A stretch of DNA of 5,361 nucleotides. Source: JBFLXN01 sp040755715 [NCBI: Candidatus Edwardsbacteria bacterium] (GTDB lineage Bacteria; Edwardsbacteria; AC1; JBFLXN01). The translations under genes were made by a program, and so were the position numbers. The stretch is taken from positions 1 to 5,361 of the forward strand of contig JBFLXN010000178.1 of NCBI GenBank assembly GCA_040755715.1, in the 5' to 3' direction. Shown piece by piece: positions 1,874 through 5,157 of the stretch. Below the pieces are notes generated by a model. The model was not told the DNA's origin and did no database searches. It saw nothing but the letters and a program-made list of their open reading frames with translations. Position 1 is the stretch's first letter. Each line of letters begins with the position of its first letter.

Positions 1874-2040
1874 AAGTAGCGAGTAGCAAGTAGAGAGTTC
1901 TGGGTTTATTGGGTTTGTTGGGTTTATTGGGTTTGTTGGGTTTGTTGGGTTTGTTGGGTTTTAGTAACCCGATAAACTCAATAAACTGTGTAAACCCAAT
2001 AAACTTTTTTTACTGATTATTACTCTCTACTCACTACTTA
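1874..2040. repeat. nested inverted repeat made of heptamer and nonamer tandem arrays
   Basis: A composite element fills the gap between the two metallo-hydrolase genes. The outer left arm (1874-1899) is a tandem of heptamers, AAGTAGC GAGTAGC AAGTAGA. The outer right arm (2021-2040) is the same pattern inverted, reading AAGTAGT GAGTAGA on the minus strand. Inside are six exact 9-bp units, TGGGTTTAT or TGGGTTTGT (1901-1954), and the start of a seventh. Then come a five-base loop TTAGT (1961-1965) and four inverted 9-bp units, AACCCGATA, AACTCAATA, AACTGTGTA and AACCCAATA (1966-2001). Folding 1922-1960 on 1966-2004 gives 30 matches in 39 positions by hand count. The element overlaps the last codons and stop of the glyoxalase-like gene and ends a few bases before the beta-CASP start. 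It has no coding capacity for a transposase. It could be a structured miniature element, a processing signal in mRNA, or inert repeat DNA. Confidence 0.88.
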
Positions 2041-2798: not shown

Positions 2799-3314
2799 TT
2801 AGAGCAGTTTCAATTCTCCCCTTTCTAAAGCCAGTAGTTTTTTCTTCCACTCAAGTCCACCAGAGAAACCACCCAAAGAACCATTTTTTCTTATTACCCG
2901 ATGACAGGGAATAATAATAGGCAGTGGATTAAATTTCAAAGCCAACCCTACTGCTCTGGCGGCTTTTGGCTTTCCCAATTCTTTCGCTATCCAAGAGTAA
3001 GAACGCACCTGTCCGTATGGGATACGACGCACTCTTTCCCAAACTGCTCGTTCAAAAGCAGTTGTTCCTCGTAAATCAAGCGGATAGTTGAAATTCACAG
3101 GGATACCGGCAAAATAGCCGCAGAGGTCAACAATCAACGGCTCAAAGAAATTCTCATCTCTCCTTAATTCAACCTTGACCTCTTTTGCAATTGTTTCAAA
3201 AAATTTTTCTTCCGGCTTGGATAATTGCAAATAGAAAAGCCCTCGCTCAGTGGCGGAGAGACAAATCTCACCGAAAGGTGAAGAGAAAAATGTGTAATAG
3301 AGAATTCCAGACAT
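2799..3314 (-). CDS. ogt: methylated-DNA-[protein]-cysteine S-methyltransferase (171 aa)
   Basis: A suicide DNA-repair protein that moves alkyl groups from O6-alkylguanine (and O4-alkylthymine in the family) to its own cysteine. Numbering from the upstream TTG codon at 3317, the N-terminal half (about 5-80) is the poorly conserved ribonuclease-like domain. The C-terminal half has the helix-turn-helix region YGQVRSYSWIAKELG (Y107), the arginine-finger context AARAVG (R121), NPLPIII (N130), the acceptor-cysteine motif PCHRV (C138) and a glutamate near the end (E165, in LALERG). Every residue expected for activity is present, and the length fits Ogt without an Ada domain. The start is either TTG at 3317 or the following ATG at 3314; I prefer ATG, with AGG nine bases upstream. 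It is co-directional with the DUF1016 gene but 98 bases away, so it may have its own promoter. Confidence 0.93.
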   Translation of the reverse strand: MSGILYYTFFSSPFGEICLSATERGLFYLQLSKPEEKFFETIAKEVKVELRRDENFFEPLIVDLCGYFAGIPVNFNYPLDLRGTTAFERAVWERVRRIPYGQVRSYSWIAKELGKPKAARAVGLALKFNPLPIIIPCHRVIRKNGSLGGFSGGLEWKKKLLALERGELKLL

Positions 3315-3380
3315 CAAAATTTACCTATTTGACATTTTTAGAGTGGCACTTAACCTTAGTGTATAATTAACTTTCCACCT

Positions 3381-3399
3381 TCAAAATCATTGGTCAGTG
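3381..3399. repeat. 19-bp direct repeat, left copy, flanking the DUF1016 gene
   Basis: Reads TCAAAATC, then AT, then TGGTCAGTG. The copy at 4544-4562 is identical except for the central two bases (GC), giving 17 of 19 matches in the same orientation. This copy lies 13 bases beyond the DUF1016 stop codon. A few bases to the right (CG, then TTCTG here and TTGTG there) also align with small gaps. The pair may mark a duplicated junction or be two members of a dispersed family. Confidence 0.7.
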
Positions 3400-3412
3400 C
3401 GTTCTGAAATAA

Positions 3413-4522
3413 TCATTTCTTTTCCTCTATCAATTTTGGTATTGGTTTAAGTTTGAGTCTTAGCTCTTTCTCCGAAGGCAATGCTAATTTATATTTGGAA
3501 GCGAAAACTTTATTGTTCAAGCCACCCAAGACATATTTTGCAAAAATATCATCCTTTTTGGCACAGAGTATAAGACCTACTGGATCATTCTCTCCTTCTG
3601 CTTTCTCGTTATCTTTAATATAATTCAGATAAAAGTTCATCTGCCCAATATCTGAATGGTCAAGTTCGTCTGTTTTCAAATCTATCAGAACCAAACATCT
3701 CAACAATCTGTTATAAAAAACCAAATCTATGTAATAATGACGGTTAGCAATGGTAATTCTCTTTTGACGGGCAACAAAAGCAAACCCTTTACCAAGTTCT
3801 AATAAAAAGTGTTGAAGTCTATCAATCAGGGCTTGTTCTAACTGACTTTCAGTATAAGAGGTTTCTTCTTTAAGATTAAGAAACTCAAGTATATATGGGT
3901 CTTTTATTGCATCCTCTGGTTTTTCTATTATTTGCCCTTTCTCTGCCATTTTCATTACTGCTTTGACATCTTTGCTGTAAGCAATTCTTTCAAAGAGCAT
4001 TGAATTGATTTGTCTCTTTAGTTCACGCACAGACCAATTATTCTGGATTGCCTCTTGTTCATAAAAAGAACGGGCAAGAGGTTCTTCTACCTTCAGCAAT
4101 TCGCAATAATGAGACCAGGAGAGCATCGGTTCAAATTTGGCAGACAGTGTTTGGGATTTTTCACCCTCAGATTTCCAAGACAGTCTCTTGGATTTTTGTC
4201 TTTCAGAAGATTTGGCAGACAGTGTCTGCCGAATTGGAAAATTGAGATAAAAAACTCTGATGTTCCTTAAGTTCCTTTCTGAGAACCCTCTTCCAAATTT
4301 GGCAGTCATGTCTGCCGAAAGTTTTTTGAGTAGTTTTTCTCCGTACTCTGCCCTTGCCTTACCTTTCTGCTCAAACTCTACAATCTCTCTGCCAATCTCC
4401 CAGTATGCCAAAACTTGTGCCTTGTTTATATCTCGGATTACCTTTGTTCTTGCAAGTGTTAAAATCTCGGCAATCCTATCAAGCAAGTTGTTATAATTTA
4501 TTGCAGTTAATCCTTTTTCCAT
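3413..4522 (-). CDS. DUF1016/YhcG-family PD-(D/E)XK nuclease (369 aa)
   Basis: A putative DNase of the YhcG group: an N-terminal DUF1016 domain (about 8-95, including AYWEIGREIVE and FGRGFSERNLRN) followed by a PD-(D/E)XK nuclease domain (about 205-345). Conserved pieces are LSWSHYCELL (134-143), FLLELGKGFAFVARQKRI (239-256), YIDLVFYNRLL (D266), LVLIDLK (D281, K283), DIGQMNFYLNYI (291-302) and GLILCAKK (316-323). D266, D281 and K283 form the expected active site; the second acid is Asp where many relatives have Glu. Relatives are often found near restriction or other defence genes, but their function is poorly known. Odd feature: residues 98-131, between the domains, are three imperfect in-frame repeats (QTLSAK, KRLSWK, QTLSAK) encoded by palindromic DNA. 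The ATG has AAAGG seven bases upstream. The gene is bounded by matching 19-bp repeats. Confidence 0.9.
   Translation of the reverse strand: MEKGLTAINYNNLLDRIAEILTLARTKVIRDINKAQVLAYWEIGREIVEFEQKGKARAEYGEKLLKKLSADMTAKFGRGFSERNLRNIRVFYLNFPIRQTLSAKSSERQKSKRLSWKSEGEKSQTLSAKFEPMLSWSHYCELLKVEEPLARSFYEQEAIQNNWSVRELKRQINSMLFERIAYSKDVKAVMKMAEKGQIIEKPEDAIKDPYILEFLNLKEETSYTESQLEQALIDRLQHFLLELGKGFAFVARQKRITIANRHYYIDLVFYNRLLRCLVLIDLKTDELDHSDIGQMNFYLNYIKDNEKAEGENDPVGLILCAKKDDIFAKYVLGGLNNKVFASKYKLALPSEKELRLKLKPIPKLIEEKK
4136..4233. repeat. three in-frame palindromic repeats inside the DUF1016 gene
   Basis: Copy C (4211-4233) is a near-perfect palindrome: TTTGGCAGACA, G, TGTCTGCCGAA, with 10 of 11 arm positions complementary. 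Copy B (4172-4194) is TTTCCAAGACA, G, TCTCTTGGATT; its arms differ from C but still pair (CCAAGA with TCTTGG). Copy A (4136-4158) has the left arm of C exactly and a right arm resembling B, TGTTTGGGATT, so it is no longer a palindrome. The copies are spaced 39 and 36 bases apart, both multiples of three, and all are read in one frame to give QTLSAK, KRLSWK and QTLSAK. They lie at the junction between the DUF1016 domain and the nuclease domain, where length change should be tolerated. Confidence 0.85.
4298..4319. repeat. fourth related palindrome within the conserved DUF1016 domain
   Basis: TTTGGCAGTCA followed by TGTCTGCCGAA closely resembles copy C of the linker repeats; aligning them needs a one-base gap at the centre and one substitution nearby. 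Here the sequence encodes the conserved family segment LSADMTAKF rather than a linker insertion. The similarity may be a source-copy relationship or chance. Confidence 0.55.
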
Positions 4523-4543
4523 ATAAATACCTTTCTTCCCAGA

Positions 4544-4562
4544 TCAAAATCGCTGGTCAGTG
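4544..4562. repeat. 19-bp direct repeat, right copy, upstream of the DUF1016 gene
   Basis: Reads TCAAAATC, then GC, then TGGTCAGTG, in the same orientation as the copy at 3381-3399, 1163 bases away. It lies within the 59-base gap between the HNH gene stop (4582) and the DUF1016 start (4522), about 21 bases before the ATG. It would therefore be in the 5' leader of the nuclease mRNA. The ribosome binding site (AAAGG, complement of 4530-4534) lies outside the core. Confidence 0.7.
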
Positions 4563-4581
4563 GCGGTTGTGGATTAAACAT

Positions 4582-5157
4582 CTAACTTTTTGAAGAAATT
4601 TTATAACCGTGCCTTTCAAGTATCTGCCGAAGAGTGTCTATTGTCTCAGAGACGGTCTGCTCATCTTGAATATAGTTACACCTTCTATGAACCCATATCA
4701 CATTTTGGACATTATGACCTTCTCTCGCGCGCGAAAGTGGAATTAAATGTCCCATTTGAATAGAAACAGGATCCATTCTCCCCGAACGCATAAAATCCTC
4801 AAAATTTATAGCCTCCTGACAAATCGGGCAATAGGTTATTTCTTCAGCAAATTCCCTATCTTTATTTAGCAATGGGATTAACTGTTCAGAAATTGAAGGT
4901 GCATTTCTACTTTTGAGAAGCAACCAAGTTAGTTTCTTCGCTGCTCCGAGGGTATTTTGTTTTGTGCTATATTCAGCATGGTCTTTTTTAAGTTGCCACC
5001 TTGCTATTCGTTTACCCCTTATAGAGAAAGCGGCGACTTCAATCTTATCAATATATTTTGTTGTAAGAATACTCTTTAGTTCTTCAAGAATTCTTACCCA
5101 TTCTTTTGGTAGTTCTGCTGTCGCAAATTTCCGCAAGACCCAATAATGCCACGGCAT
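4582..5157 (-). CDS. HNH-type endonuclease with zinc knuckles (191 aa)
   Basis: Probably a DNA endonuclease of the HNH (beta-beta-alpha-metal) class; I do not recognise the exact family. The C-terminal part holds the signature: CPIC (C110, C113), then MGHLIPLSR (H137), REGHNVQN (N149 or N152) and WVHRRCN (H157, C160). The two Cys/His pairs would bind structural zinc, while H137, N152 and H157 are the likely catalytic set. The tail NYIQDEQTVSETIDTLRQIL after the motif recalls, from memory only, some Type II restriction enzymes with HNH sites. The N-terminal 105 residues, rich in basic and aromatic residues, show no domain I know and may bind DNA. No signal peptide or membrane segment is seen. 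The start is firm: AAGGAGG lies five bases before the ATG. No methyltransferase is visible in the window. The DUF1016 nuclease follows 59 bases downstream in the same direction. Confidence 0.82.
   Translation of the reverse strand: MPWHYWVLRKFATAELPKEWVRILEELKSILTTKYIDKIEVAAFSIRGKRIARWQLKKDHAEYSTKQNTLGAAKKLTWLLLKSRNAPSISEQLIPLLNKDREFAEEITYCPICQEAINFEDFMRSGRMDPVSIQMGHLIPLSRAREGHNVQNVIWVHRRCNYIQDEQTVSETIDTLRQILERHGYKISSKS

What the first reader, a model, noticed from the sequence alone, without database searches (positions are those of the whole stretch)
4136..4233. Palindromic repeats expanded in frame inside a nuclease gene
Three copies of a roughly 23-base palindrome sit in tandem at the junction between the DUF1016 domain and the PD-(D/E)XK domain. 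Spacings of 39 and 36 bases keep the frame and give the peptide repeats QTLSAK, KRLSWK and QTLSAK. Short palindromes inserted in frame into genes are known elsewhere (Rickettsia palindromic elements), so this may be an independent case of a protein-tolerated nucleic-acid element. Alternatively the palindrome could be a site the nuclease itself or its host acts on.
Basis: partly seen in the sequence, partly recalled or inferred. Interest (0 to 1): 0.68.

Follow-up and report, generated by a model that had tools for sequence, protein, structure and literature searches.

The report
Nuclease gene carrying its own target
A widespread family of bacterial and archaeal nuclease genes carries, inside the protein-coding sequence, the palindromic DNA site that the encoded protein appears to bind, and site and protein change together, so the gene itself seems to tell us what its product recognises.

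Summary
The palindromes are real, but they are neither a mobile element nor a junction linker. They lie inside the N-terminal domain of a YhcG (DUF1016) nuclease gene. The first (4210-4234) is strong; the other two are decayed. Most YhcG genes examined, bacterial, archaeal or viral-contig, have a palindrome here (185 of 210 distinct linkers against 38 of 1,208 control windows), kept palindromic although its sequence differs between genes. Synonymous-codon shuffles speak against a peptide explanation; mismatch types do not favour an RNA hairpin.

The key result is a recognition code. The N-domain resembles ParB/Noc DNA-binding domains in a structure prediction, and residues of its presumed contact helices predict palindrome bases: Arg83 with G at position 7 (79/82 against 9/144; 40 concordant, 0 discordant, 7 tied contrasts), Glu86 with C8, Ser137 with A3. 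The same rules held in 93 new sequences (83 usable; Arg83-G7 27/27 against 3/56). Two E. coli allele types differ mainly in one block holding recognition helix and sites.

So YhcG most likely binds a palindrome inside its own gene. Extra palindromes obey the code only loosely. What binding does (autorepression most likely, or cleavage or exclusion) is inferred.

The parts
3413..4522 (-). yhcG gene, 369 aa: DUF1016_N (PF17761, residues 17-179) plus YhcG_C PD-(D/E)XK nuclease (PF06250, residues 204-358)
   Evidence: best PADLOC match PDC-S02, 475.7 bits
4210..4234 (-). primary palindrome ATTCGGCAGACA-C-TGTCTGCCAAAT, centre 4222 = first base of codon 101; codons 97-104 encode I-R-Q-T-L-S-A-K
   Evidence: its bases k2 C, k3 A and k7 G are those usual with R166, S137 and R83
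4174..4192 (-). second, degenerate palindrome TCCAAGAGA-C-TGTCTTGGA, centre 4183
4139..4155 (-). third, degenerate palindrome CCCAAACA-C-TGTCTGCC, centre 4147; only the 3' half matches the primary site
4241..4279 (-). codons 82-94, predicted recognition helix; R83 (4274-4276), R86 (4265-4267), N87 (4262-4264)
   Evidence: helix 82-94 in the model; alignment columns 83, 86 and 87 covary with palindrome bases
4103..4114 (-). codons 137-140 (S137, C140), presumed second contact helix; alignment columns 122 and 125
   Evidence: covary with bases k3 and k4; helix 136-142 in the model
4025..4027 (-). codon 166 (R166), presumed third contact helix; alignment column 151
   Evidence: covaries with base k2; helix 165-173 in the model
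3449..3913 (-). PD-(D/E)XK nuclease domain; D266 and K283 invariant in 72 aligned homologues, D281 in at least 90%
   Evidence: similar to EndoMS and a P. abyssi repair endonuclease, Z 11.7 and 11.4

Best explanation
YhcG is a ParB/Noc-like sequence-specific DNA-binding protein fused to a PD-(D/E)XK nuclease, and the palindrome is its own parS/NBS-like site, placed in its own reading frame between the codons of two DNA-contacting helices, in a protein loop (disordered in the model where long) that tolerates many peptides. A dimer binds the site: helix 82-94 reads the outer bases (k5-k8), the helix after the linker (137, 140) reads k3-k4, and residue 166 reads k2. SHOWN by comparison: DNA-level palindromes at an orthologous position, base-for-residue covariation, the same rules in new sequences. 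INFERRED: physical binding, the dimer, and the role. Most likely role: autogenous control, in which bound protein blocks transcription through the gene and keeps the nuclease at its own locus and low. Placing the site next to the recognition-helix codons keeps site and specificity together when the cassette changes or is exchanged. My confidence is about 0.9 in self-binding and about 0.5 in autorepression as its main role.
For: (1) Palindromes: 185 of 210 distinct linkers score >=7 against 38 of 1,208 control windows; 165 of 210 exceed synonymous shuffles at p<=0.01; 182 of the 185 are odd and centred on codon position 1. (2) Compensatory variation, e.g. position 7 paired in 57 of 58 minimal linkers against 20 expected under independence. 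(3) Code in 226 sequences: R83-G7 79/82 vs 9/144, E86-C8 36/37 vs 3/189, S(col 122, window 137)-A3 111/123 vs 0/103, R(col 125)-C4 41/46 vs 2/180, R(col 151)-C2 150/151 vs 17/75. (4) Contrasts on a FastTree tree built without these columns (concordant/discordant/tied): R83-G7 40/0/7, E86-C8 18/0/1, S122-A3 24/0/7, R87-C5 16/1/5, R151-C2 7/0/6, R125-C4 7/1/3; the best p among 1,200 control tests was 0.004, that of R83-G7 2e-12. (5) Held-out 93 sequences, 83 usable: R83-G7 27/27 vs 3/56, E86-C8 7/7 vs 2/76, S122-A3 30/36 vs 0/47, R151-C2 56/56 vs 6/27. (6) N-domain model: the 13 best of 164 chains in the structural second look are ParB/Noc/Spo0J, Z 5.4-8.7, next row 5.1; ParB contacts parS with helices 4, 6 and 8, and work on variants pairs residue 173 with base 1 and residue 201 with base 6 (PMC7383237 passages), the same outer/inner order as here. 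(7) E. coli alleles: K85/R88 with site CGCC and R85/W88 with site GTGC (E. coli numbering = columns 83/86) differ mainly in one DNA block, nt 240-420.
Against: No binding, expression or cleavage was measured. Foldseek's own E-values for the ParB/Noc matches are weak (best 0.47), and Z below about 13 for helical domains can be a common arrangement (tool note). Extra palindromes in the same gene follow the code only loosely (R83: 20 of 28 have G7, others 10 of 37; E86: 21 of 25 have C8, others 9 of 40), and E. coli second and downstream copies partly contradict it. R125-C4 is not significant by contrasts (p = 0.07), and columns far from the presumed interface also associate with k2-k4 (e.g. col 60 Trp with C3, 46/56 vs 8/170), so the inner-base rules are partly confounded with subfamily. 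Columns 10, 71 and 81 also ranked in the top ten without an explanation. 25 of 210 linkers score below 7. Within 50 nt before the start, where a classic operator would sit, six palindromes were found in 210 gene entries; three are of this type (L069, L078, L003), and the L003 copy does not match its own protein's type.
Confidence: 0.72

Rival explanations
1. The palindrome is a cleavage or exclusion target rather than an operator: YhcG cuts or nicks at or near the site, so elements that carry the same specificity type exclude or convert each other, and the cassette of recognition helix plus site spreads by recombination.
For: PD-(D/E)XK domain with invariant D266 and K283 and EndoMS-like fold; in 12 genomes the core site lies almost only in yhcG genes (10 of 11); 12 paralogues read in one genome all differ in their best palindrome (G004); E. 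coli allele types differ by one divergent block; E. coli alleles with in-frame and frameshifting deletions of palindromes 2 and 3, and truncations whose ends (nt 385 and 406) fall in palindrome 3, next to IS1 or another transposase gene.
Against: A nuclease that cuts its own gene needs a control that was not found; restriction-modification genes were near yhcG in only 5 of 13 loci looked at. The E. coli breakage is anecdotal.
Confidence: 0.22
2. A hairpin in mRNA (or single-stranded DNA) is what matters: the palindrome is kept because the folded strand is recognised or regulates translation.
For: Strong hairpins are predicted (E. coli linker z = -11.4 as single-stranded DNA); arms are kept complementary.
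Against: G-T mismatches on the coding strand are not commoner than A-C (22 against 42 in 1,640 cells; synonymous ones 14 per 373 against 18 per 606 opportunities); the window linker as RNA has z of only -2.7; amino acids of a presumed DNA-binding domain predict the bases; no Rfam match at E<=0.1 for 3300-4700.
Confidence: 0.04
3. Rickettsia-type mobile palindromic element inserted in frame.
For: In-frame palindromic repeats whose number varies between relatives.
Against: Core found almost only in yhcG (10 of 11 sites in 12 genomes; in one E. coli chromosome 4 of 6 sites in or just behind yhcG); one orthologous position with different arm sequences across phyla.
Confidence: 0.02

Closest known systems
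ParB-parS and Noc-NBS
   Same: Predicted fold of the N-domain; palindromic site contacted by a recognition helix plus two further helices; outer bases read by the recognition helix and inner ones later; specificity set by a few residues (PMC7383237, passages read). I also recall that a B. subtilis parS site lies inside spo0J itself; two searches found no passage on this.
   Different: No ParB CTPase domain detected by Pfam; fused to a PD-(D/E)XK nuclease; the site lies inside the reading frame of its own protein in most family members examined and varies greatly, whereas parS is nearly constant (recalled).
I-TevI homing endonuclease as autorepressor
   Same: A nuclease that also binds a site at its own gene to limit its expression, as proposed here (PMC2988022, passages read).
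   Different: Its operator lies upstream and resembles the homing site; a coding palindrome that travels with the specificity-determining part of the gene is not described in those passages.
Rickettsia palindromic elements
   Same: Palindromes translated in frame (PMC4316617, passages read).
   Different: They are about 100-150 nt and occur in genes and gaps; here about 15-33 bp, almost confined to one gene family and position.
Type I restriction specificity subunits (HsdS)
   Same: Exchangeable specificity parts (recalled); some yhcG genes lie near hsdM, hsdS or hsdR (L018, L053, L069).
   Different: HsdS genes are not known to carry their own recognition sequence as a conserved coding element (recalled).

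Membership tests
YhcG / DUF1016 nuclease family | DUF1016_N and YhcG_C domains above Pfam cut-offs | tested here: met
   PF17761 152 bits, PF06250 197.4 bits
YhcG / DUF1016 nuclease family | conserved PD-(D/E)XK active-site residues | tested here: met
   D266 and K283 invariant, D281 in at least 90% of 72 homologues
ParB/Noc family | ParB/Noc-type DNA-binding fold | tested here: inconclusive
   the top 13 rows of the second look are ParB/Noc/Spo0J, Z up to 8.7, but Foldseek E-values are weak (best 0.47)
ParB/Noc family | N-terminal CTPase (ParBc) domain | tested here: not met
   Pfam scan of the window protein finds only DUF1016_N and YhcG_C at E<=0.001; hence 'works like', not a member
ParB/Noc family | sequence-specific binding of a palindromic site | not testable with these tools
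   only comparative evidence: base-residue covariation and held-out prediction
Rickettsia-type palindromic elements | many copies in different genes and intergenic regions of the genome | tested here: not met
   10 of 11 core sites in 12 genomes of relatives lie in yhcG; the window's own genome is not held
Rickettsia-type palindromic elements | length about 100-150 nt | tested here: not met
   palindromes of about 15-33 bp
Anti-phage defence (PADLOC PDC-S02) | match to the family models | tested here: met
   475.7 bits, E 2.2e-143
Anti-phage defence (PADLOC PDC-S02) | demonstrated protection against phage | not testable with these tools

The most novel reading that the evidence does not exclude
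YhcG genes are self-addressed: the recognition helix and its cognate DNA site form one exchangeable cassette inside the open reading frame, so specificity can change while the gene always keeps a site for its own product. The site then acts as an identity tag by which these mobile nucleases regulate, exclude or convert copies of the same type. Extra palindromes in a gene would be tags of other or former types.
Probability: 0.35. Interest if true: 0.96.

Novelty: new variant of a known kind. Interest (0 to 1): 0.92.

Why it matters
DNA-binding specificity normally has to be measured protein by protein. Here each gene appears to carry the answer inside itself, so public genomes would hold a very large natural table of protein-DNA specificity pairs for a ParB-like domain, from which a recognition code can be read and tested. 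It gives a first molecular handle on YhcG/DUF1016, a common nuclease family whose function I found described nowhere in the papers searched. It is also a clear case of a protein sequence shaped by a DNA site written inside its own coding sequence, and it suggests a source of sequence-specific nucleases with readable targets.

Tried and rejected
Peptide motif (QTLSA) as the thing conserved: not favoured, given synonymous shuffles, palindromes in other reading frames (L349, L365, L367) and subfamilies with different peptides at the same place. Mobile repeat: rejected. mRNA hairpin: not favoured; no Rfam match. Palindromes as a record of viral targets: GGCAGACANTGTCTGCC gave 5 viral-contig stretches, 1 of them in a yhcG gene. 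GTGCAACANNTGTTGCAC was a spacing error of mine and served as an accidental control (25 stretches, none with a yhcG hit); the intended GTGCAACANNNTGTTGCAC gave 33, of which 5 hold a yhcG gene by HMM. No clear enrichment outside yhcG. Mutation alone (template switching between arms): may help arms change together, but does not explain 123 palindromes scoring >=9.5 in linkers against 9 in the rest of the same genes, nor the residue code. A search for each gene's palindrome elsewhere in its locus found little beyond a few flanking copies (mean best match 12.6 of 19 against 11.9 for other genes' palindromes). No solved structure matched the whole protein by sequence at E<=0.01; the N-domain profile gave 8 matches, all with E>=0.019 and none named as a DNA-binding ParB.

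What was dropped or capped: the genome scan kept the best 80 of 584 relatives, and genome searches give only their best-scoring loci; 8 of 106 sequences had no linker by the first regular expression; 31 of 260 HMM hits lacked an anchor column and 19 of 229 were duplicate linkers; even-centred, weak (<6.5) and identical rows were left out of the code tables, leaving 226. The contact columns were first picked by a scan of the same data; the held-out set was fetched afterwards and the rules were applied unchanged. 83 of its 93 sequences were usable. It comes from two classes centred on genomes already sampled; median best identity to the first set is 0.67, and 84 of 93 are below 0.8. Held-out rules not quoted elsewhere: Trp/Phe86-T8 23/23 against 34/60, Arg87-C5 27/37 against 4/46, Thr122-G/T3 21/27 against 2/56, Gly122-C3 13/13 against 17/70, Arg125-C4 9/10 against 5/73; Gln87-C6 (2/2 against 29/81) and Asp83-G6 (1/1 against 25/82) were hardly tested.

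Full report
WHAT IS THERE. The gene at 3413-4522 (minus strand) encodes a 369-aa YhcG protein with DUF1016_N (residues 17-179) and a PD-(D/E)XK nuclease domain (204-358). Its best PADLOC match is PDC-S02; of the 25 matches shown, 24 bear that name and one is a CRISPR-associated PD_DExK model. That PDC stands for a defence candidate is recalled. The three palindromes lie in codons of a loop inside DUF1016_N, between helix 82-94 and the conserved W-S-H-Y motif at 136-139. Only the first (4210-4234) is strong; the other two have decayed. In the model the loop is disordered (100-106 and 108-120 with pLDDT below 50).

A FAMILY-WIDE FEATURE. The eight homologues fetched first, from the plasmid collection, all have a palindrome at this place, with different arms. 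I then took 80 loci from species genomes (the best 80 of 584) and 17 from viral contigs, and more from genome searches. Of 210 distinct linkers, 185 hold a palindrome scoring at least 7, against 38 of 1,208 control windows of the same genes; 165 exceed synonymous-codon shuffles at p<=0.01 and 195 at p<=0.05. 182 of the 185 are odd and centred on the first base of a codon; a few sit in another frame (L349, L365, L367), so the peptide is not what is kept. Arms vary by compensatory change: at position 7 from the centre 57 of 58 minimal linkers pair against 20 expected under independence. Subfamilies with different peptides (IVQQLVAQIPW, IVASLSRQLSW, KLQPLVAEISW) have the palindrome at the same centre.

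NOT A MOBILE REPEAT, NO SIGN OF AN RNA HAIRPIN. CAGACANTGTCTG occurs at 11 places in 12 genomes of relatives; 10 are in yhcG genes, four of them in four paralogues of one genome with different arms. In an E. coli chromosome CAGACNNNGTCTG occurs six times: three in yhcG, one just behind it, two elsewhere, of which I looked at one. Pooled mismatches at positions 2-9 are 22 G-T, 42 A-C and 51 others in 1,640 cells, and synonymous opportunities are used about equally (14 per 373 against 18 per 606), so G-U pairs are not favoured.

THE CODE. Asking which protein columns explain palindrome similarity beyond overall identity pointed to columns 122, 83, 87, 150, 86 and, for single positions, 125 and 151; columns 10, 71 and 81 also ranked high and remain unexplained. 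Columns 122, 125 and 151 are window residues 137, 140 and 166. With k the distance from the centre on the 5' arm: Arg83 goes with G7 (79/82 against 9/144), Glu86 with C8 (36/37 against 3/189), Trp/Phe86 with T8 (39/39 against 65/186), Arg87 with C5 (27/36 against 11/190), Ser122 with A3 (111/123 against 0/103), Arg125 with C4 (41/46 against 2/180), Arg151 with C2 (150/151 against 17/75). Arg with G and Glu with C are chemically usual contacts (recalled). Columns far from the interface also associate with k2-k4 (for instance column 60 Trp with C3, 46/56 against 8/170), which reflects subfamilies, so contrasts matter. On a FastTree tree built without columns 80-125 and 148-152, separate contrasts gave (concordant/discordant/tied) Arg83-G7 40/0/7, Glu86-C8 18/0/1, Trp/Phe86-T8 12/0/11, Arg87-C5 16/1/5, Gln87-C6 8/0/10, Ser122-A3 24/0/7, Thr122-G/T3 24/0/10, Asp83-G6 13/0/2, Arg151-C2 7/0/6 and Arg125-C4 7/1/3 (the last not significant); the best of 1,200 control tests had p = 0.004. 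Six contact columns correlate with half-site similarity at 0.518 after removing overall identity, against at most 0.219 in 300 random sets. The same rules on 93 new sequences (83 usable) gave Arg83-G7 27/27 against 3/56, Glu86-C8 7/7 against 2/76, Ser122-A3 30/36 against 0/47, Arg125-C4 9/10 against 5/73, Arg151-C2 56/56 against 6/27; 83 of the 93 had a palindrome scoring at least 7, against 12 of 274 control windows.

STRUCTURE. The N-domain alone (L040, pLDDT 88.8) matches ParB/Noc/Spo0J DNA-binding domains in all 13 best rows of the structural second look (164 chains; Z 5.4-8.7), then drops to 5.1. Foldseek itself ranks ParB/Noc first but with weak E-values (best 0.47). The nuclease half resembles EndoMS and a P. 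abyssi repair endonuclease (Z 11.7, 11.4). In ParB the recognition helix 4 and helices 6 and 8 contact parS, and variants pair residue 173 with base 1 and residue 201 with base 6 (PMC7383237, passages). The coupled columns here lie in three helices and read outer, inner and innermost bases in the same order; equating the helices one by one is my inference.

E. COLI AS A NATURAL EXPERIMENT. Alleles differ in palindrome number: three in K-12 and L007, two in L120 and L125, one in O157:H7 after a 78-bp in-frame deletion. L007 and L120 are 92-100% alike before nt 240 and 88-100% after nt 420, but 60-65% between, a block holding recognition helix and palindromes. Their first palindromes match the code: K85/R88 with CGCC, R85/W88 with GTGC. 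Second and downstream sites do not always: both R85 alleles have C at position 7 in their second palindrome.

HOW IT LIKELY WORKS. The protein most probably binds its own palindrome as a dimer. Why inside the gene is inference: written next to the recognition-helix codons, the site stays matched to the protein through changes or exchanges of specificity. The simplest use is autogenous repression, as for I-TevI (PMC2988022, passages). A nuclease that cuts or excludes copies of its own type is the main rival. Of 13 loci whose neighbouring frames I scanned (20 of the 32 frames listed), 5 had restriction-modification genes and 2 a phage integrase near yhcG.

NOT IN PRINT, AS FAR AS SEARCHED. 'DUF1016' (10 papers), 'DUF1016' with 'palindrom' (3), 'YhcG' with 'palindrom' (4), 'YhcG' with 'PDDEXK' (1), 'PDC-S02' (4), palindrome and in-frame terms (110, of which 20 were listed) and a combined search (0) showed no report of this in the open library. 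I saw listings, and passages of PMC4316617, PMC7967276, PMC11341870, PMC1913061, PMC7383237 and PMC2988022; PMC7333895 was searched for terms without a hit. Subscription papers and preprints were not covered.

Noticed in passing
window 3381-3399 and 4544-4562: A 19-bp direct repeat (89%) flanks yhcG on both sides. Across loci, direct repeats scoring >=12 between the 120 nt before and after yhcG occur in 13 of 179 gene entries (L056 counted twice) against 0 of 179 mismatched controls (e.g. L148 54 bp, L019 45 bp, L048 62 bp), as if the gene arrives by an insertion that duplicates its flank.
   Followed up: partly
window 4301-4317: CGGCAGACATGACTGCC in codons 69-74 of the same gene: two half-sites like the primary palindrome but with no base between them.
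   Followed up: no
L007, L117, L118, L120, L125, L126 (27 nt behind yhcG); L069, L078, L003 (21-36 nt before it): Further palindromes of the same type just outside yhcG; the L069 copy is identical to the internal one, the L003 copy belongs to another type than its own protein.
   Followed up: partly
L117 (E. coli K-12 yhcG): K-12 has Arg in place of a Trp that is invariant in 72 aligned homologues and a mismatch in its first palindrome, so the allele may be inactive.
   Followed up: no
L121-L124 and L126 (E. coli): yhcG is truncated in a number of E. coli strains; in the 60 rows sampled, 12 matches start at nt 385 or end at nt 406, both inside the third palindrome.
   Followed up: no
G004 (genome of L040): 16 DUF1016_N matches, some partial, in one 5-Mb genome, with a different best palindrome in each of the 12 copies read.
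   Followed up: partly
window 1901-1961 and 1972-2005: Nine-base tandem repeat (TGGGTTTGT)n with an inverted partner array between the two metallo-hydrolase genes.
   Followed up: no
window 4582-5157: The gene just upstream of yhcG matches the DraIII restriction enzyme family of Pfam (35.7 bits, cut-off 27).
   Followed up: no
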